Source: Ruficoccus sp. ZRK36
Lineage (GTDB): Bacteria; Verrucomicrobiota; Verrucomicrobiia; Opitutales; Cerasicoccaceae
DNA length: 64,000 nt
Assembly: GCF_019603315.1 (NCBI RefSeq)
Contig: NZ_CP080649.1
Location: forward strand, 3,420,176-3,484,175
Reading direction: 5' to 3'
Shown: in pieces, positions 2,189 to 51,026 of the stretch
Numbering within the stretch: position 1 is the first letter of the stretch
How the letters are laid out: the number at the start of each line of letters is the position of its first letter
Made by a program: the position numbers and the translations under genes
The notes under the pieces: generated by a model
What the model was told of the DNA's origin: nothing
Database searches by the model: none
The model's input: only the letters and a program-made list of their open reading frames with translations

Positions 2189-2345
2189 AGTATTAATACG
2201 TGAGAGTAGTTAAGCGAATACCGAAATGATGAGCACCTAGCGAGCCAAAATCTCCCCCGGAGCACCTTCTGATCATGAATGCTCATCAGGTACAGTGCAG
2301 ACTTGCATGGGAGGCGATAGTGGTTTCTTTTCCGGTAATAAGGGC

Positions 2346-4178
2346 ATGCCCAGGGTCAAACGTAGTAGCATCGAAAATCTCCGACAGCGGGTCAGCCTCC
2401 TGGATGTGGTTGCCCCGTACACGCAGATGAAGCGCGCCGGTGCCCAGTTTCGCGGATTGAGCCCTTTTAACGCGGAGAAGACCCCCTCGTTTTACGTCCA
2501 TCCGGAGAAAAATGTCTTCATGGACTACTCATCCGGTAACGCCGGGGACCTCTTCCGCTTCGTCCAGCTGAAGGAGAACCTGGAGTTCGGCGAAGCGGTC
2601 GAGCTGCTGGCCGAGCGCTTCAGCGTGCCGCTGGAGTACGAGGACGACGGCATGCCCCGCGAGCGCCTCTCCCTGCGCAAGGAGTTGCTCAGCCTGCACG
2701 AATTCGCCACCGACTACTACCATCGCTGCTTCCAGGCCGAGCACGCCGACTCCGCCGCCATGCGCGAGTATTGGACCGCCAACCGCCGCTTCCCCCTGGA
2801 GCTGGCGGACGAGTTCAAGATCGGCTTTGCGCCCGCTGGCGGCGGCAAGCTCCCCGACCTTTTACGGCAAAAGGGCTTCTCCGCCGAAGCCCTGCACCAG
2901 TGCGGCCTCTTTTACATCAACGACCACGACACGGAGGCCCGCAGCCCCCGGCCCCGGTTCCGCGGACGGCTCATGATCCCTATCCGCGACGTGCAGGGCC
3001 GCGTCATCGCCTTTACGGCCCGGCAGACGGACCTCACCCCGCAGGACGATCCTTCCCGCGAGGCCAAGTACATCAACTCGCCCGAGACTCCGCTCTTTAA
3101 GAAAAGCGATGTGCTCTTCGGGCTGGAGCGCGCACGCCAGCACCTCAGCGACGGGCAGAGCCTGATCCTCGTCGAGGGGCAGCTCGACTGCCTCCGCTGC
3201 GTGGAAAAAGGCATCCTCAACGCCGTGGCCCCACAGGGCACCGCCATTACCGAGCACCAGCTCGCCCTCCTGCGCCGCTACAGTAACCGCGCCGAAGTCC
3301 TTCTCGACGGCGACCGCGCCGGGCAAAAGGCCGCCCTGCGCATGCTTCCGCTCGCCCTCAAAACCGGGCTCGATGTGCGCTTCCTGTGCCTGCCCAACGG
3401 CAGCGACCCTGACGAGCTCCTGCGCGAAGGCGGCGCTGACGCCCTGGAGGCCCTTTACCGGGAGGCCCTCGGCTGGGTAGAGTTCGCCGTCTCGACCCTC
3501 CTGCCTGCAGGCACGGTCCCCGGCAGTCCAGAAGAACGCCGTGGGCTGGACGAGATCTTTAGCATCATCGCCCAGAGTGAGAGCGCCGTCATCCGCGAGC
3601 AGGCTCTCTCCGAGCTGGCCCTGCGTATGAGCCGGGTTGACCGGCTCGCCCTGCAGCGGGACTTCGAACGCTTCAGCAGCGGGCAGACCCGCCCGGCCCC
3701 ACAGGCCGAGCAACCCGCCCCGCAGAAAGTATCCGAGGCATTGACAAGCGCTGAGTCTCAGCTATTGTTAATCGCTTTGCATAGCGATAGACTGGCTCAT
3801 TCTATTTCTAATACTGTTGATCACCAGTGGGTTAACGGCAAATCAATAGAGGGCGGGCTATTGCGTAAACTGATAATAGAGTTCCAGAGTGAAAACTGGA
3901 ACGGCCTTGATGATTTTATTGAACTGCTTGAGTCCGACGAAGAAAGAAACTATCTTTATTCCCTGCTCAACCGGGATGTGGAGCTGGACGAGCCCGAGCA
4001 AACTGTGCTCGGACCCATTCAGGCGCTCTATCGCCGGCACGTTATGCAGCTACAAAAGGAGCTCGATCTCAAGCTCATGAATACGCCCGCTGACGACGCC
4101 GAGAGCATCCGCGCACTGCACCGCCAGCGGATCGAGCTTCGCAGTCAGCTAAGAAATCCCCCCGCGATCAGCCTTTAA
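2346..4178 (+). CDS. dnaG: DNA primase DnaG lacking the N-terminal zinc ligands
   Basis: DnaG makes RNA primers at the replication fork. The start at 2346 (MPRVKRSSIENLRQRV) gives 610 residues and matches the usual N-terminus; the longer frame from 2295 adds unrelated residues. The CHC2-type domain (about 35-75) keeps the EKTPSF core, but the four metal ligands are replaced: CPFH reads SPFN, and CFGC reads DYSS, giving Ser39, Asn42, Asp60 and Ser63. The TOPRIM domain is intact, with VEGQLD near 275 and DGDRAG near 319. The C-terminal helicase-binding part contains a short AT-rich stretch with rare codons (about 3735-3960). The gene lies 39 bp upstream of rpoD in the classical dnaG-rpoD order. 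Confidence 0.96.
   Translation: MPRVKRSSIENLRQRVSLLDVVAPYTQMKRAGAQFRGLSPFNAEKTPSFYVHPEKNVFMDYSSGNAGDLFRFVQLKENLEFGEAVELLAERFSVPLEYEDDGMPRERLSLRKELLSLHEFATDYYHRCFQAEHADSAAMREYWTANRRFPLELADEFKIGFAPAGGGKLPDLLRQKGFSAEALHQCGLFYINDHDTEARSPRPRFRGRLMIPIRDVQGRVIAFTARQTDLTPQDDPSREAKYINSPETPLFKKSDVLFGLERARQHLSDGQSLILVEGQLDCLRCVEKGILNAVAPQGTAITEHQLALLRRYSNRAEVLLDGDRAGQKAALRMLPLALKTGLDVRFLCLPNGSDPDELLREGGADALEALYREALGWVEFAVSTLLPAGTVPGSPEERRGLDEIFSIIAQSESAVIREQALSELALRMSRVDRLALQRDFERFSSGQTRPAPQAEQPAPQKVSEALTSAESQLLLIALHSDRLAHSISNTVDHQWVNGKSIEGGLLRKLIIEFQSENWNGLDDFIELLESDEERNYLYSLLNRDVELDEPEQTVLGPIQALYRRHVMQLQKELDLKLMNTPADDAESIRALHRQRIELRSQLRNPPAISL
3741..3768 (+). promoter_or_regulatory. Possible internal promoter for rpoD inside dnaG
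   Basis: Inside the 3' third of dnaG lie TTGACA (3741-3746) and TATTGT (3763-3768), separated by 16 bp. They sit at the start of the AT-rich stretch of this otherwise GC-rich gene. Internal rpoD promoters within dnaG are known from Escherichia coli. This one is suggested only by the hexamers and the local base composition. Confidence 0.3.
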
Positions 4179-35188: not shown

Positions 35189-36271
35189 TCAGGAGCCGAG
35201 CTGCTTCATGATCATATCGGTGACTTTCTGCACGAGGGCTTCGGTCTCGTCCTTGCCACCGGGCTTGAAGCTCATCGGGTTGATCACGCCGGTATCAGCC
35301 TGGCAGACGACGCCGGGGCGGAACTCCACGTTGTCGCACAGTTCGCATTCCTTCCAGTCGGCACGCTTTTCGGGCATCCCGAGGCTGGTGCGGATGTTCA
35401 TCAGGTCCTTGAGCTTCTGCGGCCCGTAGGTCTTCATGCCACCGAGCTGCGAGGCCACGTAAACCGTCTGGCAGTACGACTCGGTGTTTTCCATCTTCCA
35501 GTAGGCGTCCTCGACGTCCTTACCCCAGACGATGACGCCGTGGTTTTCCATCAGGATCGACTGGTGGTCTGGAGCCATCGCGCCGACGGTCTTGGCCATC
35601 TCGGCAGAGCCGGGAGTCTCGTACGGAGCCAGGCCAATCTGGCCGAGGAACACCTCGGGCTCAGGGATCAGGCAGGTCGGCGGGACCATGCCGCAGACGG
35701 CAAAAGCGGTGGCGTAGATCGGGTGCGCGTGCACACAGGACTTGGCTTCGGGCGTGGCCTTCATGATGGCCAGGTGCGTGTTACACTCGCTGGTACGCTT
35801 GCGGCGACCGGCGACCTGGTTACCGTCCATGTCCACCAGGGCGATGTCATCGGGATTGATGTAGCCCTTGGAGATCAGGGTCGGTGTGCAAAGCACGAGG
35901 TTGTCACCGACGCGGATGGTGATGTTACCGCCGTTACCGTCGCAGAAGCTGCGGGCCCAGATGCGGCGGCCCATGTCGCACATGCGCTCCTTGAGGACGC
36001 GGATTTCGGGCGAATTAAAGAAAGCCTGAATCGCCTCCGGGGTCTTCGGGTCGGTGCCCGGCTTCCAGTGAAATTCGTAGTCGGGCACGATCGGCTCGTC
36101 GGACTTGGAAGACGGGGCGGCGGCCTTACCGGAGGCGGCACCCTTCTTCAGAGCTTCGCGGATCGCGTCGCGTGCCGAAGGCGTGATCACCGCGCCCTCG
36201 GGGATGGCGGTAACGTCGCCACCGGCGGCTACGATGTCGGCAATGTCTTTGGCTGTGTAAACCTTCTTCAT
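35189..36271 (-). CDS. Class II sugar-phosphate aldolase with N-terminal encapsulation peptide
   Basis: Starting at 36271 (MKKVYTAKDIADIVAAGGDV) the protein has 360 residues. Residues ~1-45 form a helical, alanine-rich extension and linker (ARDAIREALKKGAASGKAAA), of the kind that targets enzymes into microcompartments. The class II aldolase domain follows: GNGGNITIRVGDNLVLCTPT, the metal-binding VHAHPIYATAFA and ENHGVIVWGKD. By family and context it would cleave L-fuculose- or L-rhamnulose-1-phosphate to dihydroxyacetone phosphate and lactaldehyde. The C-terminal region has a Cys-containing stretch (WKECELCDNVEFRPGVVCQ) reminiscent of a metal site. It is the last gene of the operon. Confidence 0.9.
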   Translation of the reverse strand: MKKVYTAKDIADIVAAGGDVTAIPEGAVITPSARDAIREALKKGAASGKAAAPSSKSDEPIVPDYEFHWKPGTDPKTPEAIQAFFNSPEIRVLKERMCDMGRRIWARSFCDGNGGNITIRVGDNLVLCTPTLISKGYINPDDIALVDMDGNQVAGRRKRTSECNTHLAIMKATPEAKSCVHAHPIYATAFAVCGMVPPTCLIPEPEVFLGQIGLAPYETPGSAEMAKTVGAMAPDHQSILMENHGVIVWGKDVEDAYWKMENTESYCQTVYVASQLGGMKTYGPQKLKDLMNIRTSLGMPEKRADWKECELCDNVEFRPGVVCQADTGVINPMSFKPGGKDETEALVQKVTDMIMKQLGS

Positions 36272-36308
36272 GGTAAATGTCGGTGTTGGGTAAGGAAGGG
36301 TAAAGGAA

Positions 36309-36605
36309 TCAGCCCGCGGGCTGGTAGTTAAGATTTTCGATGATGGCGGCGTTATAGGCGTCGATGGGCGTGGGCTGCTCAAAGGGAGCGGTCGCCTCGG
36401 CACCCTCGACAAAGCCGATAATATCGCCACGGGTCGCGCCCATGTCGTCGTAGACAACGGTCGAGGGCGAAGCGGAAATAATCTCCTGGTCCGGCTGGCT
36501 CAGCTGCGGGCGGGACATCGGGCTGACCAGCAGCCAGCGCGCCCCGCGAAAGGCGGGGTCCTGACGGCTGAGGGTCACTCTGCCTATGACGCGTCCGAGT
36601 CTCAT
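36309..36605 (-). CDS. Pentameric microcompartment shell protein (BMC-P), divergent pore
   Basis: This 98-residue EutN/CcmL-type protein caps the vertices of the shell. The beta-barrel start MRLGRVIGRVTLSRQDPAFR and GARWLLVSP are typical. The pore-side loop usually reads GAGxGD but here is GATRGD (in DDMGATRGDIIGFVEG), placing an Arg at the pore. The C-terminus is extended (IDAYNAAIIENLNYQPAG). It begins 2 bp after the preceding BMC-P gene, indicating tight coupling. Confidence 0.9.
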   Translation of the reverse strand: MRLGRVIGRVTLSRQDPAFRGARWLLVSPMSRPQLSQPDQEIISASPSTVVYDDMGATRGDIIGFVEGAEATAPFEQPTPIDAYNAAIIENLNYQPAG

Positions 36606-36607
36606 GG

Positions 36608-36862
36608 CTAGTCAACAATCCCCATCACCATGTTGCGCAGCGGCGAGTGCTCATCGCCTACGTGCTCGCGGGCACAGCTGCCATCGGTGGTGTAAAACAC
36701 CCGGTCACCAATGCCCGCGCCCTGCTCGTCCATGGCAATGACGGGGTCGCCCTTTTCGCGACCCTCTTCGTCGATGCCCTGGAGGATGAGCAGACGCCAG
36801 CCCCTCAAGGTCTTGTGACAGACCGTCGAGGTGATGTTACCGTCTACTCGGGCTAGGATCAT
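36608..36862 (-). CDS. Pentameric microcompartment shell protein (BMC-P)
   Basis: This 84-residue EutN/CcmL-type vertex protein contains MILARVDGNITSTVCHKTLR, GWRLLILQG and the canonical pore segment DEQGAGIGDRVFYTTDGSCA. One of three BMC-P paralogues in the operon; each pentamer may have its own position or stoichiometry. It lies 52 bp after pduP and 2 bp before the next BMC-P gene. Confidence 0.93.
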   Translation of the reverse strand: MILARVDGNITSTVCHKTLRGWRLLILQGIDEEGREKGDPVIAMDEQGAGIGDRVFYTTDGSCAREHVGDEHSPLRNMVMGIVD

Positions 36863-36914
36863 GGTGACTGGATGGAGTTTGGGTTATGCAAAAAAAACGA
36901 AACCTCTACGACCT

Positions 36915-38375
36915 CTAGTACATCTGGAGGTTATCCACCATCACGCAGCGGCGGCGGCGGGTAAAGGTGTCCGGCGTAGTAATGCCCTCACCGGTGGTGG
37001 TGGCGATGGAGAAGCTGGAGTAGCCCTCGCCGCCGGTACCGAGCCCGGCCAGGCAGGAGCCGTTCTTGACAAACACGGTGGAGTCCAGCGCGCGGGCCAT
37101 CATGCCCATGTGCTCGACATTCAAAGAGTGGATCATGGAGGAGTGCTTGTATCCATGCTCGGATACACGGGCCAGCTCGATAGCCTCCTCGATGTCGCGC
37201 ACCCGCACGACGGGAACCATCGGCATCATCTGCTCCTCCATCACAAAGGGGTGGTCCGCATCGGTCTCGGCGAAGAGCAGCTCGGTGCTCGCCGGGCAGC
37301 TTGCGCCAGCAACTTCAGCCAGGCGGGTAGCGTCAGCGCCGACCAGGTCGCGATTCAGCACCGGGTGGGAGCAGCCGCCGCCATCCTTCTTATAGGTAAA
37401 AGCGGCCTCGGTCAGCTTGCCCAGCTGAGAGTCGTTGATCTGGATCGCACCGGCATCCTTGAAGGCTTGCAGGAACGCGCCGTAGACCTTGTCCAGGACG
37501 AATATCTGCTTCTCACCGACGCAGAGCAGGTTGTTATCAAAGGCGCCGCCGACGATGATGTCGCGCGCGGCTTTTTGCAGGTTGGCGGACTCGTCAACGA
37601 CGACCGGCGGGTTACCGGGGCCGGCGCAGATAGCGCGCTTGCCGCTTGCCATAGCGGCATTGACGACTCCGGGACCACCCGTCACACACAGCAGGTTGAC
37701 GTGTGGGGACTTGCAAAGGGCGTCAAAGGATTCGAGGGTCGGCTTCTCGATGATTGTCACGAGATTTTCGATACCGACTTCATCCTTGAAAAGGCGGTTG
37801 TAGTAGCGGATGGCCTCGGCCGCGCAGCGGGCGCCACCGGGGTGCGCATTGAAGACCACACCGTTACCGGCGGCTACCATGCTGACGATGTTGCAGCTGA
37901 TGGTCGGAATGGAGTGCGTCACCGGGGTGATCGCTCCGACAACACCGAAGGGCGTGTTTTCCTCCATGGTGATGCCGTGGTCGCCGCTCATGCCGCGCGG
38001 GGCGAGCCACTCGACACCGGGCAGACCGGGGATACCGGCGAGCTTGGCGACCTTGTGCTCCAGGCGGCCGATCTTCGTCTCGTCAAACTCGAGCTGGCCC
38101 CACTCCTGAGCCTTTTCGGCGCAGGTTTGCTTGACCAGGTTGACGATCTTGTTGCGACCGGCGATGCCGAGCTTGCGCAGTTGCTTCTGGGCGTGGGAAG
38201 CGGCCTCGGAGGCCTCACCAGCGTCCTGAAAAACACCGTCGCGGCCCTTGGCGGAAGCGGAGGGCTTAGAGCAGCCGCAATCCGAAGCGGCAGCGGGAGC
38301 TGCCTGCTGGCCGAGTTTTTTCAAAACATCTTCCACCACGGACTTTAGCGTGGCTTCATCAATATTCAGGCTCAT
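36915..38375 (-). CDS. pduP: CoA-acylating aldehyde dehydrogenase, PduP type, with encapsulation peptide
   Basis: This 486-residue enzyme oxidises the encapsulated aldehyde (here probably lactaldehyde) to acyl-CoA with NAD. The first ~22 residues form an amphipathic helix (LNIDEATLKSVVEDVLKKLG) that matches known encapsulation peptides, followed by a linker with a CGC motif (SDCGCSKPSAS). The dehydrogenase core has GVVGAITPVTHSIPTISCN, the NAD-site GAGPGNPP-like ICAGPGNPPVVVDESANLQ, and the catalytic Cys in FDNNLLCVGEKQIF. Unlike typical cytosolic ALDHs it lacks the general-base Glu, as is normal for acylating enzymes. It is flanked by BMC-P genes. Confidence 0.94.
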   Translation of the reverse strand: MSLNIDEATLKSVVEDVLKKLGQQAAPAAASDCGCSKPSASAKGRDGVFQDAGEASEAASHAQKQLRKLGIAGRNKIVNLVKQTCAEKAQEWGQLEFDETKIGRLEHKVAKLAGIPGLPGVEWLAPRGMSGDHGITMEENTPFGVVGAITPVTHSIPTISCNIVSMVAAGNGVVFNAHPGGARCAAEAIRYYNRLFKDEVGIENLVTIIEKPTLESFDALCKSPHVNLLCVTGGPGVVNAAMASGKRAICAGPGNPPVVVDESANLQKAARDIIVGGAFDNNLLCVGEKQIFVLDKVYGAFLQAFKDAGAIQINDSQLGKLTEAAFTYKKDGGGCSHPVLNRDLVGADATRLAEVAGASCPASTELLFAETDADHPFVMEEQMMPMVPVVRVRDIEEAIELARVSEHGYKHSSMIHSLNVEHMGMMARALDSTVFVKNGSCLAGLGTGGEGYSSFSIATTTGEGITTPDTFTRRRRCVMVDNLQMY

Positions 38376-38404
38376 GGGAGGGAGAGTTGTCGGTGGTGGG
38401 TTGC

Positions 38405-38716
38405 TCAGGGCTTATCCTTGTAGACCTGCTGGCCGAGGACGTCGACCGTGTCCACGATGCCGATCACGGCAGCGTCCACGGGGAGCGGTTTCATGCCTTC
38501 GGCCTGCCGGGCTGAGCTGCCCGAGCAGAACAGGACCATCTCGCCGACGCCGGCACCGAGCCGGTCCACCGCGATCACGGTACTGGAGCCATCGCGAAGC
38601 TCATCCGGGCTGTCTGCGCTGGCGACCTGAGGCCGCAGGATCAGCAGCCGCTGCCCGCGCATGGCGGGATCTTTTTTCGTCGAGACGACGTGGCCGATGA
38701 CTTTGGCGAGAAACAT
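38405..38716 (-). CDS. Pentameric microcompartment shell protein (BMC-P)
   Basis: Starting at 38716 (MFLAKVIGHVVSTKKDPAMR) the product has 103 residues; the longer open frame overlaps the preceding BMC-H gene and is rejected. It has the EutN/CcmL fold with GQRLLILRPQVA and the canonical pore segment VDRLGAGVGEMVLFCSGSSA. It is the most standard of the three vertex proteins here. It lies 29 bp upstream of pduP. Confidence 0.94.
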   Translation of the reverse strand: MFLAKVIGHVVSTKKDPAMRGQRLLILRPQVASADSPDELRDGSSTVIAVDRLGAGVGEMVLFCSGSSARQAEGMKPLPVDAAVIGIVDTVDVLGQQVYKDKP

Positions 38717-38810
38717 GGGTACTAAGTGAGGTCGGGCGCCCCTGCTCCGGCCCCGGCTCGTCCCCTGCTCGGGGAGGGCGCGGAGTCCGAAACCTGGCGC
38801 GTCCGCCGGG

Positions 38811-39101
38811 TTACTTCTTGGCGGCGGGAGCCTTGATGATGCTCTTGGCCAGCTCTTCAGCCGGGCGGGCAATGACGTGGGCGCTGACCACTTCGCCGAA
38901 GGCGGAAGCGGACTGGGCACCGGCGTCGATGGCAGCCTTGACGGCGGCGACATCGCCGACGATCGTGGCGCTAACCAGCGCGCTGCCGACGTTCTTCATC
39001 GGGCCGACCAGTTCGACATTGGCAGCCTTGAGCATGGCGTCGACGCCCTGCACGAGCGAGATGAGACCTTTGGTTTCGAGAAGTCCGAGTGCTTGGGACA
39101 T
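38811..39101 (-). CDS. Hexameric shell protein (BMC-H), third paralogue with altered pore loop
   Basis: This 96-residue Pfam BMC-domain protein begins [20 protein letters not shown] and keeps [20 protein letters not shown] and SAHVIARPAEELAK. The pore loop, IGSG or IGGG in its two paralogues, is NVGSA here and one residue longer (PMKNVGSALVSATIVGDV). A short Ala/Lys tail is added. It sits between ackA and a BMC-P gene, apart from the other two BMC-H genes. Confidence 0.93.
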   Translation of the reverse strand: MSQALGLLETKGLISLVQGVDAMLKAANVELVGPMKNVGSALVSATIVGDVAAVKAAIDAGAQSASAFGEVVSAHVIARPAEELAKSIIKAPAAKK

Positions 39102-39150
39102 GATTGCGTGAGTTAAGGTTTCTTTGGGTTGATTTTGAAAGTGGTGGTAA

Positions 39151-40341
39151 TCAGTTGGCCGGGGCGAGGCGCGCCTGCATGAAGCGGTAAACTTCGCGGG
39201 CGACGACCAGCTCTTCGTTGGCCGGAATGACGAGCGCCTTGATGGCGGCGTCGGGGGTGGAGAAAATCCCCTCGTCCTTGAGGGAATCGTTGGTAGCGGT
39301 GTCGAGTTTCAGCCCGAAGGGCTCCAGACCAGCGCAAACGGCGGCACGCAGGCAGGGATTGTTCTCGCCGATACCGCCGGTGAAGGCGATAGCGTCGATG
39401 CCACCCATCTGCCAGAATAAGCCGCCCGCCCACTGGCGAATGCTGTGGATCAGGACGTCCATGGCGAGCTTGGCGCGCTCATTGCCTTCTGCGGAAGCAT
39501 CCAGCAGGTCGCGCACATCGTTGCTCACGCCCGAGAGGCCGAGCAGCCCACCCTCCTTGGTCAGTTGGCGCTCGATCTCGTCGATCGAGAGTCCGCCGAC
39601 CTTGGCCATGTAGGGCACAGCCATGGAGTCGAGGTCGCCCACGCGGTTGTTCTGCGGGAGGCCACCCTGCGGGGAAAAGCCCATGCTGGAGCCAATTGCC
39701 ACGCCATTGCGGATACCTGTGACAGAGCTACTGCCACCGAGGTGGCAGGAGACGACGCGCAGCGGCTTTTCCACCGGCGTATCACCTTTCTGATACAGGC
39801 TCTGAACCTTGGCAGCGACATCGTCGCGACCCAGAAGTTGCGCCGAGCGCTCAGCCACAAACTTGTGACTCGCACCGTGGAAGCCGTAGCGGCGGACACC
39901 GAGCTCGAACCAGCTCTCCGGGACAGCGTAGCGGCAGGCCGCGGGGCTCATCCACTGGTAGAATGCCGTCTCAAACAGAGCCACACGCGTGACCTTTGGC
40001 ATGACCTTGGCGAACATTTTAATCCCGTTCGCGTAGGCCGGGTTATGAGCCGGGGCGATAGCCTCAAAGCCCGCCAGGGCCGCGAGGACTTTCTCGTCTG
40101 CCTCGACACAGCCGCTCAGATCCTTACCGAGCACGGTTTTGAAACCGACCGCGTCCAGATCGTCAGCGCCTGTGAGGTGGCCCTCAGCTTCGAGGTTCTT
40201 GATACAGTCCTCGATGACCGGGCCGAAGTCCTCAACGCGCTCGTACCCTCCCTTGGCAAGGAGAGTCTCTGCCACGCCGTCCAGCTCGAAGAGCCGGTAC
40301 TTGAACGAGGTCGAGCCGAGATTGGAGACGAGTATTTTCAC
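39151..40341 (-). CDS. ackA: Acetate-kinase-family enzyme of the microcompartment operon
   Basis: This 396-residue acyl-phosphate kinase would turn lactoyl- or acetyl-phosphate plus ADP into the acid plus ATP. The N-terminal ASKHA motif is NLGSTSFKY (Asn7, Ser10, Ser12 kept), and RYGFHGASHKF, NNRVGDLDS and VIPANEELVVARE are present. Two active-site positions differ from ordinary acetate kinases: the usual GHRVVHGG is GFKTVLGK (Arg replaced by Lys68) and the usual FDTAFH is FETAFY (Asp replaced by Glu124). No encapsulation peptide is visible, so it may act outside the shell. Confidence 0.93.
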   Translation of the reverse strand: MKILVSNLGSTSFKYRLFELDGVAETLLAKGGYERVEDFGPVIEDCIKNLEAEGHLTGADDLDAVGFKTVLGKDLSGCVEADEKVLAALAGFEAIAPAHNPAYANGIKMFAKVMPKVTRVALFETAFYQWMSPAACRYAVPESWFELGVRRYGFHGASHKFVAERSAQLLGRDDVAAKVQSLYQKGDTPVEKPLRVVSCHLGGSSSVTGIRNGVAIGSSMGFSPQGGLPQNNRVGDLDSMAVPYMAKVGGLSIDEIERQLTKEGGLLGLSGVSNDVRDLLDASAEGNERAKLAMDVLIHSIRQWAGGLFWQMGGIDAIAFTGGIGENNPCLRAAVCAGLEPFGLKLDTATNDSLKDEGIFSTPDAAIKALVIPANEELVVAREVYRFMQARLAPAN

Positions 40342-40447
40342 CGCTGCTTAGGTAAGTCTAAAGCTGAATGGCTGGGCTGTGCAGGAAGTGGCCGGATATG
40401 GCCAAGACTTCTTCCACACGCCAGCACTCAAGCCGTAAACGTCTGTC

Positions 40448-40726
40448 TTAGCCGATCCAGGGGCCGAGCTTGGAAAGGTCGTCGTGGGGGCGAGGGATCA
40501 CCTGCACACCGACCACCTGGCCGACTGCAGAGGCGGCCTCAGCACCGGCGTCAACGGCAGCCTTGACTGCAGCGACATCGCCGTGGAAGAACCCGGTGAC
40601 GATCCCGCTGCCGATTTTTTCCCAGCCAGCGAGGGTGACGTCAGCCGACTTGAGGGCGGCGTCCGTAGCTTCGAGCAGGCTGATCAGGCCCTTGGTTTCG
40701 ATCATACCGATAGCTTGTTTTGCCAT
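40448..40726 (-). CDS. Hexameric shell protein (BMC-H)
   Basis: This 92-residue BMC-domain protein has [20 protein letters not shown], the pore loop [17 protein letters not shown] and [15 protein letters not shown]. It forms hexagonal tiles that make the facets, with the KIGSG loop lining the pore. It follows the first BMC-H gene by 27 bp, and a 106-bp spacer separates it from ackA. Confidence 0.96.
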
Positions 40727-40753
40727 TTTCGGAAATGTGTTGGATGTTGGATT

Positions 40754-41023
40754 TTACAGTTCGAACTGCTTGATGAGGTCCGCGTGCGGACGGGGGATGA
40801 CGTGCGAGGAGACGAGCTCGCCCACGCGTGCAGCTGCTTCAGAGCCGGCGTCTACCGCCGCTTTGACGCTGCCGACGTCGCCCTTGACCATGACGGTAAT
40901 GAAACCGCCGCCGATCTGGACGCTGCGCGAGAGGGTGACTCCTGCCGCCTTGACCATAGCGTCGCTGGCTTCAATGCTGCCAACGTAGCCCTTGGTTTCG
41001 ACCATGCCTATTGAATCGCTCAT
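40754..41023 (-). CDS. Hexameric shell protein (BMC-H)
   Basis: This 89-residue BMC-domain protein has MSDSIGMVETKGYVGSIEAS, the pore loop VQIGGGFITVMVKGDV and SSHVIPRPHADLIKQFEL. It is the shortest and most standard BMC-H of the operon and probably the main facet protein. It lies 76 bp downstream of pduL. No BMC-T (double-domain) shell protein is encoded in the operon, in agreement with the Planctomycetes-Verrucomicrobia type. Confidence 0.96.
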   Translation of the reverse strand: MSDSIGMVETKGYVGSIEASDAMVKAAGVTLSRSVQIGGGFITVMVKGDVGSVKAAVDAGSEAAARVGELVSSHVIPRPHADLIKQFEL

Positions 41024-41099
41024 GTGATGTTGTTGGGTTGGTTTTAAGGAGGGTTCTTAAAGTTCGGGGTGTATTGAAAATTAAATACGCTGGGCGGAA

Positions 41100-41780
41100 C
41101 TACTTGATCAGCTCCACCTGGCTGTCCGGGCCGAGACGGCAGGCGTTGCCCTCGTCGGTGTCGATGTGGACCTCCAGCTTGAAGGACTTGTCCACGCGGA
41201 CGAAAATCTTGTCGAAGGTCATGCCCAGCTCGCCGCCGACACGCATCTTCATAAAGTCGCCCTGCTTGACGCCGTAGTGCGCGGCATCTTCGGGGGCCAT
41301 GTGCACGTGCGGGGCGGCGCGGATGACGCCCTTGTCCAGCTCCAGGAAGCCCTTGGGGCCCATCAGCATGCAGCCGGGGGTGCCCTCGATGTTACCGGAC
41401 TGGCGCACCGGGATGTCGTAGCCCAGTGCGATCGCATCCGTAAAGGACAGCTCCACCTGATTGAGCGGGCGGCACGGGCCGAGGATGCGCAGGTTAGAAA
41501 TAACACGGCTGCGCGGACCGACCAGTGTGACGGATTCCTGTGCGGCGTACTGCCCTTCCTGATAGAGCCACTTCATGGGCGTCAGCTGATGGCCGGGGCC
41601 AAAGAGCTTCTCAACGGCCTCGGGCGAGAGGTGGCAGTGGCGGGCGCTCACGTTGACCACGAGGGGGTTCGGAGCCTGGCTGGCAGCTGCCGGCGCGGAC
41701 TTGCCGAGCTGCTTGTAAATACTCTCACGCACCAGCCGCTCAATAGCGGTACGGGTCAGATCAGGAGTAGTTTGGGCCAT
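41100..41780 (-). CDS. pduL: PduL-type phosphate acyltransferase with encapsulation peptide
   Basis: This 226-residue enzyme exchanges CoA for phosphate on the acyl group, recycling CoA inside the shell. The N-terminal helix LTRTAIERLVRESIYKQLGK followed by an Ala/Pro linker is a likely encapsulation peptide. The two PduL barrels carry the zinc-binding motifs SARHCHLS and APHVHMAPEDA. Conserved GPRSRVISNLRILGPCR and MLMGPKGFLELDKGVI are also present. It is the first gene of the operon, with a 189-bp upstream region shared only with the lnt 3' end. Confidence 0.95.
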   Translation of the reverse strand: MAQTTPDLTRTAIERLVRESIYKQLGKSAPAAASQAPNPLVVNVSARHCHLSPEAVEKLFGPGHQLTPMKWLYQEGQYAAQESVTLVGPRSRVISNLRILGPCRPLNQVELSFTDAIALGYDIPVRQSGNIEGTPGCMLMGPKGFLELDKGVIRAAPHVHMAPEDAAHYGVKQGDFMKMRVGGELGMTFDKIFVRVDKSFKLEVHIDTDEGNACRLGPDSQVELIK

Positions 41781-41848
41781 GTAAAATGAAAGGGGCTTGA
41801 AAGGATTCTAGAAGATTATGCACGAAATCTCTCAAAATCTTCCAAACC

Positions 41849-43907: not shown

Positions 43908-47033
<3,126 letters not shown>

Positions 47034-47399
47034 GATCGGACCTATCCGTCTCGGAAAAGGAAAAGTGGAAAAGGTTGCCAACAAATCTTCCCCTTGGCAA
47101 GGCAGGACATAGTCCTGCACCTGTGATCCTCCGGATCACAAATGCCTTTGCCTGAAGCAAAGGCAGGAAGGGCCTCCCCCTCTTGGCAAGCTCCGGCTGG
47201 AGCAGCATTTAGGGACTGTGCTCCTACGCGGCCAGAAAGGCCGCTACACCGGCAACTCACCATCTATCCTCCCCCAATGGTAGCGACCCCGTTTCACTAA
47301 ACGCTGAAGCGATGCGCAGCATCGAAGGTGCAGGCTGTGCCTGCCGCGGGTCTGGGCTGTGCAAGCCCAGCCAGTCTCTCCAGACTCCCCTGCCCGGGA
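47034..47399. repeat. Hairpin-mosaic repeat region C
   Basis: This 366-bp gap between secA and the decarboxylase gene has no gene. Hairpins in order are GCAGGAC-ATA-GTCCTGC (47102-47118), GTGATCC-TCC-GGATCAC (47123-47139), TGCCTTTGC-5 nt-GCAAAGGCA (47143-47165) and GCGGCC-AGAAA-GGCCGC (47228-47244). A degenerate copy of the core word follows (from 47277) with CGTTT-CACT-AAACG (47290-47303). It ends in the three-hairpin unit 47310-47370, which is 54/61 identical to 32697-32757. Confidence 0.85.
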
Positions 47400-48439: not shown

Positions 48440-49579
48440 TCACGCGTCCTCAGCCTCCCCGGCCTCGTAGCGTGCGATCCAGGCTGCGGACCAGCTCTCG
48501 TAGTCGCCGGCCTCGATGTGCTCGCGGGCCTGCCGCATCAGGTCGAGGAAGAAGTGGGTATTGTGCAGGCTCAGCAGGGTGTGGCCGGTGATCTCGTTGG
48601 CCATGTTGAGGTGGCGCAGATAGGCGCGGCTAAACTTGCGGCAGGTGTAGTTATCCAAGCCCTCAACCAGCGGCGCGGGATCTTCCTTAAAGCGGTTGTT
48701 ACGCAGGTTGATCAGGCCGTCCGGGGTGAAGGCGCTGCCGTGCCGCGCCAGGCGGGTCGGCATCACGCAGTCAAACATGTCCGCCCCCAGCCCGATCATT
48801 TTCAAAAGCTGTGGCGGCGTGCCCACCCCCATGACGTAGCGGGGCTTGTCAGCGGGCAGATGCGGGATGGCCGCGGCCACCTGCTTGAGCATTTCCGGCT
48901 CAGGCTCACCCACGCTGACACCGCCGATGGCGTAGCCGGGGAAGTCCATCTGCGCCAGCGCCTGGGCGCACTCGGCGCGCTGGTCCTCAAAAACCGAGCC
49001 CTGCACGATCCCGAAGGCATGGTGCCCGCGCTCGAAAAAGCCGTCCGCCGCCGCGATATCCCGGAACTGCTGCGCCCAGCGGATGGTACGCTCCAGAGCC
49101 TTGCGGCTGTCCTCCTCCGAGCAGGGAAACGGCGGGCACTCGTCGAGCACCATGGCGATATCGCTGCCGAGTGATCTCTGGATGCGGAAGCAGCTCTCCG
49201 GGTTGAGAAAAATCTTTGTCCCGTCGATGTGGGACTGGAAGCGGATGCCGTCCTCGGTAATCTTGCGGATCTTGGCCAGGCTGAAGACCTGAAAGCCGCC
49301 ACTGTCGGTCAGGATCGGTCCATCCCAGCCCATAAAGTTGTGCAGGCCGCCAAACTTCTCGATCAGCTCCGGGCCGGGCCGGAGATTCAGGTGGTAAGTA
49401 TTACCGAGGATGATCTGTGCGCCGACCTCTTCAAGCTGGTTGCAGGTCATGGCCTTGACCGTGCCCTGTGTGCCCACCGGCATAAAGATCGGCGTCTGGA
49501 TCTCGCCATGACGGGTCTTGAGCACGCCACGACGCGGGCCATTAGAGGCAGGGACTTTTAACTGGAAACTCGACTCCAC
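48440..49579 (-). CDS. tgt: tRNA-guanine transglycosylase with incomplete zinc site
   Basis: This 379-residue enzyme inserts the queuosine precursor into the anticodon of tRNAs for Tyr, His, Asn and Asp. The start is GTG 49579 (residues ESSFQLKVPAS follow). Catalytic motifs TDSGGFQVFSL (Asp92) and GADMFDCVMPTRLARHG (nucleophile Asp270) are intact. The zinc site is normally CxCxxC plus His; here CDCYTC reads LDNYTC, so Leu308 and Asn310 replace two Cys, while Cys313 and His339 remain. The fold elements around it (FSRAYLRHL) are conserved. Confidence 0.96.
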   Translation of the reverse strand: MESSFQLKVPASNGPRRGVLKTRHGEIQTPIFMPVGTQGTVKAMTCNQLEEVGAQIILGNTYHLNLRPGPELIEKFGGLHNFMGWDGPILTDSGGFQVFSLAKIRKITEDGIRFQSHIDGTKIFLNPESCFRIQRSLGSDIAMVLDECPPFPCSEEDSRKALERTIRWAQQFRDIAAADGFFERGHHAFGIVQGSVFEDQRAECAQALAQMDFPGYAIGGVSVGEPEPEMLKQVAAAIPHLPADKPRYVMGVGTPPQLLKMIGLGADMFDCVMPTRLARHGSAFTPDGLINLRNNRFKEDPAPLVEGLDNYTCRKFSRAYLRHLNMANEITGHTLLSLHNTHFFLDLMRQAREHIEAGDYESWSAAWIARYEAGEAEDA

Positions 49580-50567: not shown

Positions 50568-51026
50568 ATGTATTGCCCCAAATGTGGACATAAAGACACC
50601 AAGGTGCTCGACACCCGGATTGGTAAAAGCAAGCTCTCCATCCGCCGCCGACGCGAGTGCCTGGACTGCGGCTATCGCTTCACCACGGTGGAGGAAATCC
50701 TCCGCGAAGGCCTCGTCGTCATCAAGCGTGACGGACGCCGGGAGGACTTTGACCGCATGAAGATCCTCGATGGTCTGCGCAAGGCCACGGAAAAGCGCCC
50801 CATCCAGGCTGAGCAGATCGAGATGATGGTCGCCGAGATGATGGAAGCGCTCGATAGCGAGTTTGACACGGAGATCCCGACCAAGGCTATCGGCGAGCAC
50901 ATCATGAACCGCCTCAAGGCCATCGACTCTATCGCCTTCGTCCGCTACGCCAGCGTGTACAAGGACTTCCGCGACATCAACGAGTTCGCCAAGGAAATCA
51001 GCGCGCTCAAGAAGACCGCGCGCTAG
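50568..51026 (+). CDS. nrdR: Transcriptional repressor NrdR
   Basis: This 152-residue repressor of ribonucleotide reductase genes senses dATP/ATP. It has an intact zinc ribbon (Cys3, Cys6, Cys31, Cys34; [10 protein letters not shown] and [15 protein letters not shown]) and then the ATP-cone domain ([37 protein letters not shown]). The intact zinc site contrasts with the lost ones in DnaG, TGT and SecA. Target NrdR boxes upstream of nrd genes are not in the window. It lies 107 bp after trpG. Confidence 0.97.

What the first reader, a model, noticed from the sequence alone, without database searches (positions are those of the whole stretch)
48440..49579. TGT with two of four zinc ligands missing
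The usual CDCxxC reads LDNYTC, leaving only Cys313 and His339. Both catalytic Asp residues are kept. Together with DnaG and SecA, three unrelated housekeeping proteins in one 64-kb window have lost zinc sites, whereas NrdR, PduL and the MutY Fe-S site are intact. This suggests selection for lower zinc demand in the lineage, for example in zinc-poor sea water.
Basis: partly seen in the sequence, partly recalled or inferred. Interest (0 to 1): 0.58.

Follow-up and report, generated by a model that had tools for sequence, protein, structure and literature searches.

The report
Bacterial lineage shedding structural zinc sites
The tRNA-modifying enzyme TGT of this bacterium, like that of every relative read from its order, has lost two or more of its four zinc-holding residues, and this bacterium's RNA polymerase, primase, clamp loader, ribosome and other core proteins have lost zinc sites too, so the lineage seems to have trimmed its need for zinc step by step.

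Summary
It is not local: 89 of 89 TGT rows of the Opitutales clade keep at most one of three Cys; 42 of 42 rows from other families of the class have all four ligands, except two families that lost the site separately.

In this genome ligands are also lost in RNA polymerase β′ site 2 (0 of 4; lost in 20 of 20 readable Opitutales, intact in 16 of 16 outgroup rows), DnaG (0/4), DnaX (0/4), AccD (1/4), RecR (2/4), IleS (1/4), L31, L32 and L36; SecA has a zinc-less tail instead of SEC-C. β′ site 1, DnaJ, UvrA and NrdR keep theirs. TGT and β′ losses are order-wide; DnaG, SecA and IleS losses look younger.

Best reading: stepwise dismantling of structural zinc sites, most likely zinc sparing. Sea water as cause is unproven; gut relatives share losses. 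Zinc-less ribosomal proteins of this class are published (PMC3087516); for the rest, searches listed nothing.

The parts
48440..49579 (-). tgt: queuine/preQ1 tRNA-ribosyltransferase, 379 aa, zinc-less variant
   Evidence: ORF; Pfam PF01702 E=5e-154; one match in the genome; model pLDDT 92, Z 54 to a solved TGT
48641..48658 (-). degenerate zinc knuckle L308-D-N310-Y-T-C313 (ancestral C-x-C-x-x-C)
   Evidence: alignment; tree
48563..48565 (-). retained His339 (fourth zinc ligand; kept in 88 of 89 Opitutales rows, the other row being cut off)
2295..4178 (+). dnaG primase that still matches the CHC2 zinc finger profile but has 0 of 4 ligands (S56, N59, D77, S80)
2460..2534 (+). DnaG former zinc-ligand segment (residues 56-80)
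43908..47120 (-). secA without the SEC-C zinc finger
43911..44048 (-). conserved zinc-less SecA C-terminal tail (predicted strand-strand-helix-strand, moderate confidence)
   Evidence: no Pfam family at E<=1 for the last 70 aa; alignment; model pLDDT 77, pTM 0.50
50568..51026 (+). nrdR with intact zinc ribbon (control in the window)

Best explanation
The gene is a working tRNA-guanine transglycosylase that no longer uses its structural zinc. Loss of the four-ligand site (C-x-C-x-x-C...H) began in or near the ancestor of the order Opitutales; the fold is held without the metal, apparently by local packing around a mostly conserved Asn and the kept His (inferred). It is one of at least ten structural zinc sites that this lineage has dismantled step by step in replication (DnaG, DnaX), repair (RecR), transcription (RNA polymerase beta-prime site 2), translation (IleS, L31, L32, L36, TGT), secretion (SecA) and lipid synthesis (AccD), while keeping some zinc sites (beta-prime site 1, DnaJ, UvrA, NrdR) and zinc import genes. 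Shown: the ligand losses, their rough order on the tree, and, for TGT, that fold and catalytic residues persist. Inferred: that the proteins are active without zinc, and that the driver was selection for a smaller zinc quota.
For: TGT: 89 of 89 rows of the Opitutales clade keep at most one of three Cys; 84 of them were put in a tree built without the ligand columns and form one clade. Predicted fold intact, former zinc subdomain pLDDT 94-97, Z 54.1, rmsd 1.5 over 374 residues to 1q2r. RpoC site 2: own 0 of 4 Cys; 20 of 20 readable Opitutales rows have at most one, 16 of 16 outgroup rows have four; own differs at 21 of 460 outgroup-invariant columns, including all four ligands (P about 3e-6), outgroups chosen by taxonomy; one change on the RpoC tree. 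DnaG 0/4, one change. L32 zinc-less in 8 of 8 Opitutales genomes searched, C4 in 4 of 4 outgroups. L31 and L36: single matches, zinc-less, in 8 of 8 Opitutales; f41 has the Cys forms. IleS lost in four of six Opitutales genomes. AccD, RecR, DnaX against solved structures. Not general Cys loss: non-ligand Cys per TGT 6.6 in Opitutales against 5.5 in zinc-type rows; the seven other invariant RpoC Cys are kept in own.
Against: No measurement of zinc or activity. TGT (in f8, f31), L31, L33, L36, S14 and S18 lack zinc in other bacteria too, so each alone is weak. The nesting is not clean: the marine subclade keeps SecA SEC-C although the RpoC tree puts it, weakly, among losers (two changes); IleS is intact in f5; one f3 and one f8 SecA row end without SEC-C or tail. 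UvrA, DnaJ, NrdR and, by motif, two alcohol-dehydrogenase-like proteins keep zinc motifs; a relative (f6) keeps the ClpX zinc domain. Mean total Cys per RpoC row falls from 17.9 to 11.3 (two incomplete Opitutales rows included), more than the ligands alone explain, so pressure on Cys itself is possible. At most about 39% of the genome was read, and zinc proteins in it were found by motif searches, not exhaustively. AccD and RecR were read in own alone among Opitutales.
Confidence: 0.7

Rival explanations
1. Pressure against zinc-thiolate clusters or reactive Cys (oxidants, copper or other soft metals that displace zinc), not zinc shortage, removed the sites.
For: The lost sites are Cys-rich; mean total Cys in RpoC is lower in Opitutales than in outgroup rows (11.3 against 17.9).
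Against: Non-ligand Cys in TGT is not reduced; the eight-Cys DnaJ, UvrA, RpoC site 1 and proteins with Fe-S-type Cys motifs are kept.
Confidence: 0.15
2. Neutral decay: structural zinc is often dispensable, and once stabilising changes arose the ligands drifted away without selection on zinc use.
For: Stepwise, partial loss patterns (L-N-C-H, T-C-S-H, I-N-T-H in TGT; C-S-D-S in f3 RpoC) and independent TGT losses in f8 and f31.
Against: Many unrelated sites lost in one lineage, one of them (RpoC site 2) intact in 16 of 16 outgroup rows; in RpoC all four ligand columns are among only 21 of 460 changed.
Confidence: 0.15
3. The sites still bind a metal, with the remaining Cys/His plus new ligands.
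For: C313 and H339 remain in own TGT, and His is kept in 88 of 89 rows.
Against: C313 is Thr, Ser or Ala in many Opitutales rows, the second position is mostly Asn, and 17 of 18 f8 rows lost all four; RpoC site 2 reads D-H-P-A; DnaX has no ligand left.
Confidence: 0.05
4. TGT alone is degenerating or has changed function and the other losses are unrelated.
For: E. coli TGT is described as a zinc enzyme needing its ligands (recalled, not tested here); one order member, G113, has no TGT match.
Against: Both catalytic Asp are kept in the rows read and the predicted fold is intact; parallel losses elsewhere.
Confidence: 0.04

Closest known systems
Bacterial tRNA-guanine transglycosylase (Z. mobilis TGT structures, PF01702)
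   Same: Full-length homology, same fold, both catalytic Asp, 47-48% identity in the structural alignments
   Different: Zinc knuckle C-x-C-x-x-C is L-x-N-x-x-C; in some relatives no Cys is left
Zinc (C+) and non-zinc (C-) ribosomal proteins (Makarova et al. as cited in PMC3087516; PMC3087516 itself)
   Same: The copies found here are C- forms; PMC3087516 Table 2 already gives C- for all eight proteins in Verrucomicrobiae (passages and section 13 read)
   Different: Here the same happens in non-ribosomal core proteins by ligand substitution; and four other families of the class do have a C4 L32, unlike the table
Zur-controlled zinc-sparing paralogs (B. subtilis, mycobacteria; search listing and passages of PMC3087516)
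   Same: Replacement of zinc-binding by zinc-free versions lowers zinc demand
   Different: Only one match each for TGT, RpoC, L31, L32, L36 and S14 in the own genome, so no zinc-binding partner was found: constitutive, not a switch
SecA C-terminal tails lacking the metal-binding domain (PMC6620043, passages read)
   Same: 26 of the 143 tail-bearing SecA proteins in that survey have no MBD (143 minus 117)
   Different: A specific conserved tail module replaces it in this lineage; a word search found no 'Verrucomicrobi' in the paper's main text

Membership tests
Bacterial TGT (PF01702, broad sense) | Full-length match to the TGT profile | tested here: met
   513 bits, positions 3-356 of 357
Bacterial TGT (PF01702, broad sense) | TGT fold | tested here: met
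   AlphaFold model pLDDT 92.4; Z 54.1 to 1q2r
Bacterial TGT (PF01702, broad sense) | The two catalytic Asp | tested here: met
   DSGGFQ and FDCVMP Asp columns; their roles are recalled
Bacterial TGT (PF01702, broad sense) | Base-exchange activity on tRNA | not testable with these tools
   needs enzyme assay or tRNA analysis
Canonical zinc-binding TGT | C-x-C-x-x-C...H zinc site | tested here: not met
   L, N, C, H; so filed as a zinc-less variant, not as a zinc TGT
Zur-type zinc-sparing paralog system | Zinc-free copy beside a zinc-binding copy | tested here: not met
   one match each for TGT, L36, L31, S14, L32, RpoC in the own genome
Zur-type zinc-sparing paralog system | Control by Zur | not tested
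   a Fur-family gene precedes znuA; no binding sites searched
C- ribosomal protein set | Copies lack the four Cys/His ligands | tested here: met
   L31, L32, L36, S14 as single matches of genome searches; S18, L28, L33 seen as zinc-less copies in the sampled stretches only; S4 not read in own

The most novel reading that the evidence does not exclude
Opitutales is a bacterial order whose information-processing machinery has been rebuilt to run with little structural zinc: an RNA polymerase with one instead of two zinc ions in beta-prime, zinc-free primase, clamp loader, RecR, IleRS, AccD, TGT and ribosome, and a SecA with a new zinc-less tail. The sites were lost in a readable order, leaving zinc mainly for catalysis, regulation and a few chaperone and repair proteins, so that these cells have an unusually low zinc quota.
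Probability: 0.5. Interest if true: 0.8.

Novelty: new variant of a known kind. Interest (0 to 1): 0.66.

Why it matters
Structural zinc sites in RNA polymerase, primase, clamp loader and TGT are treated as near-universal parts of these machines. A lineage that has removed many of them in turn, with close relatives that still have zinc, is a natural experiment: it shows which zinc ions are dispensable, in which order, and which residue changes take over. It makes the question of why cells put zinc in these proteins testable, and offers metal-free versions for structural and protein-engineering work. It also extends published zinc economy from ribosomal proteins to transcription, replication and secretion.

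Tried and rejected
ClpX: an own-genome ClpX-like ORF without a zinc domain (L399) looked like another loss, but the f6 relative has a ClpX with an intact zinc domain, only 36% identical to it; the own ORF is probably a paralog, so ClpX is not counted.

RpoC site 2: my first reading took a wrong column for the first ligand; the invariant-column analysis showed the right one and one search gives the corrected table. E. coli residue numbers for this site are recalled. The L063 and L086 rows are not readable at site 1 (broken frame; unknown bases) and are no evidence of loss there.

MetG, L28, L33, S14 and S18 are zinc-less here, but such forms are common elsewhere, shared with outgroups or without an outgroup read here, so they are not used as evidence. 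LeuS, ValS and CysS were left unjudged.

General Cys avoidance as the cause was tested and only partly fits.

Literature searches that ran. Apart from PMC3087516 their listings showed nothing on zinc-site loss in Verrucomicrobia; the library holds open-licence papers only.

A motif-density comparison with outgroup genomes could not be run. The 50 fold-search rows shown for the TGT model are TGT entries; no fold search was run for the SecA tail, whose model is too weak.

Full report
OBSERVATION. The interval holds a 379-residue TGT on the minus strand (Pfam E=5e-154), the only TGT match in the genome. The ligand columns read L308, N310, C313, H339, and both catalytic Asp are present.

HOW WIDE IS THE TGT LOSS. 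A class-wide sample had TGT matches in 134 of 141 genomes. I read the main TGT of 85 of those 134 (30 loci, stretches), mostly one or two per family outside the order except in f8, plus 80 named loci. 'Opitutales rows' means 20 genomes that the tool calls the window's order (L003-L022), own, and named loci that fall with them in the tree. Of these 89 rows (two identical, L015 and L058), all keep at most one of the three Cys and 88 keep the His, the other (L079) being cut off. Patterns differ: L-N-C-H and kin in most, I/V/L/A-N-T/S-H in several f3 rows, T/S-C-S-H in a subclade of records named mostly Opitutia or Opitutales, many from sea water by my reading of the titles. One more order member, G122, has a divergent TGT, L-A-S-H. 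Outside the order, 42 rows of other Verrucomicrobiae families are C-C-C-H. Two families differ: f31 (4 of 4 T-P-C-H) and f8 (18 of 18 read, of 19 in the sample, without any Cys; 17 of them also without His). On a tree of 165 rows built without the ligand columns (five rows left out beforehand: L040, L041, L044, L077, L079), 84 Opitutales rows form one clade (SH-aLRT 94) with no C-C-C-H row in it, and f8 with f31 form another of 22 (91), set inside zinc-type families; G122's long branch falls elsewhere, with the second TGT copies. So the site was lost at least twice.

IS THE PROTEIN STILL A TGT. An AlphaFold model from 45 aligned sequences has pLDDT 92, with 94-97 over residues 301-350, the former zinc subdomain. 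It aligns to 1q2r, a TGT covalent intermediate, with Z 54.1 and 1.5 A over 374 residues. Position 310 is Asn in 56 of 89 Opitutales rows, and His339 is kept; I infer that packing or hydrogen bonding there takes over from the metal. PMC6165067 (passages read) calls the zinc domain one of two hallmarks of TGTs and part of the scaffold for tRNA binding.

DnaG AND SecA. DnaG was sought in 30 genomes. Own keeps none of the four ligands; seven other readable Opitutales rows outside f3 keep one (third position); 13 f3 rows and 6 outgroup rows are intact (L157, L174 and L181 were not readable there). SecA: 30 loci end in SEC-C (12 of the marine subclade, 13 f3, 5 outgroup). Seventeen, own included, end in a zinc-less tail (15 by pattern, L063 and L076 by eye; L058 and L201 look identical). 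Nine aligned tails share R-N, V-x-I, K-x-K-x-A-E and G-W. Eight other loci are fragments or have neither, among them one f3 (L200) and one f8 row (L207). So the three losses in the window differ in age: TGT is order-wide, DnaG and SecA are younger.

SURVEY OF OTHER ZINC SITES. RpoC: site 1 (C-x-C…C-x-x-C) is kept in every row readable there. Site 2 has four Cys in 16 of 16 outgroup rows from 14 families. It reads D-H-P-A in own and f5, D-S/T-T-E in f2, f6 and the marine subclade, A-H-P-S in f4 and C-S-D-S in f3: 20 of 20 readable Opitutales rows have at most one Cys (19, and f3 G137 by eye; L457 does not cover it). L32: no ligands in 8 of 8 Opitutales, C4 in 4 of 4 outgroups. L31 and L36: zinc-less single matches in 8 of 8 Opitutales and in f8, Cys forms in f41. 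IleS C-terminal C4, one genome each: lost in f1, f2, f4, f6, kept in f3, f5, f41. From sampled stretches of the own genome (1.45 Mb with the window and overlaps): AccD 1 of 4 (against 8uxz; outgroup f22 has four), RecR 2 of 4 (against 5zvq), DnaX 0 of 4 (against 3glh). Kept: DnaJ, UvrA, NrdR, two alcohol-dehydrogenase-like proteins (named by motif only) and Fur-family proteins. Of 865 putative genes in the sample 23 hold paired Cys/His motifs, several of them Fe-S by look. A Fur-family gene, znuA with a His-rich loop and an ABC ATPase lie together, followed by an unscanned ORF that fits a permease by position.

CHANCE AND CONTROLS. In RpoC own differs at 21 of 460 outgroup-invariant columns, among them all four site-2 ligands (P 3e-6), with outgroups chosen by taxonomy. 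The DnaG and TGT figures use relatives chosen for having the site and are only illustrative. General Cys loss does not explain it: non-ligand Cys in TGT is 6.6 per protein in Opitutales against 5.5 in zinc-type rows, and the seven other invariant RpoC Cys are kept in own; yet mean total RpoC Cys does fall, from 17.9 to 11.3.

ORDER OF LOSSES. On a RpoC tree without the ligand columns the 19 Opitutales rows are one clade (100) with f3 sister to the rest (99). Site-2 loss and DnaG loss each need one change; SecA loss needs two, because the marine subclade falls, weakly, among the losers. This suggests: RpoC site 2 and TGT first (L31, L32 and L36 are also shared with f3), then DnaG, SecA and, in part, IleS. 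Among Opitutales, AccD and RecR were read in own alone, DnaX in own and f4 (which keeps two of four by eye), so their age is open.

WHAT IT MEANS. The most economical reading is lineage-wide zinc sparing. PMC3087516 (section 13 read) already lists all eight zinc/non-zinc ribosomal proteins as non-zinc in Verrucomicrobiae and leaves the cause open. The extension to RNA polymerase, primase, clamp loader, RecR, AccD, IleS, TGT and SecA did not turn up in my searches. Zinc-poor sea water as the cause is a guess: Cerasicoccus is marine (recalled), but Spyradosoma (a poultry-gut MAG by its name) shares the TGT and RpoC losses, and MAGs from buffalo, deer, goat and sheep gut share the TGT loss. An ancestral low-zinc habitat remains possible.

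Noticed in passing
L147-L151, e.g. L148:264-2327 (minus): Several Opitutales genomes carry a second TGT with an intact zinc site; the one scanned is fused to a Methyltransf_30 domain in a 688-aa ORF.
   Followed up: partly
window 43911-44048 (minus) and 16 further SecA loci: A conserved zinc-less SecA tail (about GRN[DE]xVxIRKGxExxxMKWKKAExLVxxEGWELV) stands where SEC-C is lost; no Pfam family matched the last 70 residues of the own SecA.
   Followed up: partly
L114, L212-L228 (family f8), L133, L229-L231 (family f31): Independent loss of the TGT zinc site in two further families; f8 has no Cys ligand left, though RpoC site 2 and L32 are intact in the f8 genomes read.
   Followed up: partly
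L328 (own genome, C1 about 408.4-411.5 kb): Fur-family gene, znuA with a His-rich loop, an ABC ATPase and a further ORF in a row: probable zur-znu zinc uptake locus.
   Followed up: partly
L399 (own genome, minus strand): A ClpX-like ORF without the N-terminal zinc domain, only 36% identical to a ClpX of a relative; probably a paralog.
   Followed up: partly
L112 (genome G122): A very divergent TGT (41% identity, long branch) is the only TGT match in this order member; genome G113 of the same order has none.
   Followed up: no
window about 35200-41800 (minus): By eye, a cluster with class II aldolase, aldehyde dehydrogenase, acetate kinase-like and PduL-like genes, which looks like a bacterial microcompartment locus; not scanned.
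   Followed up: no
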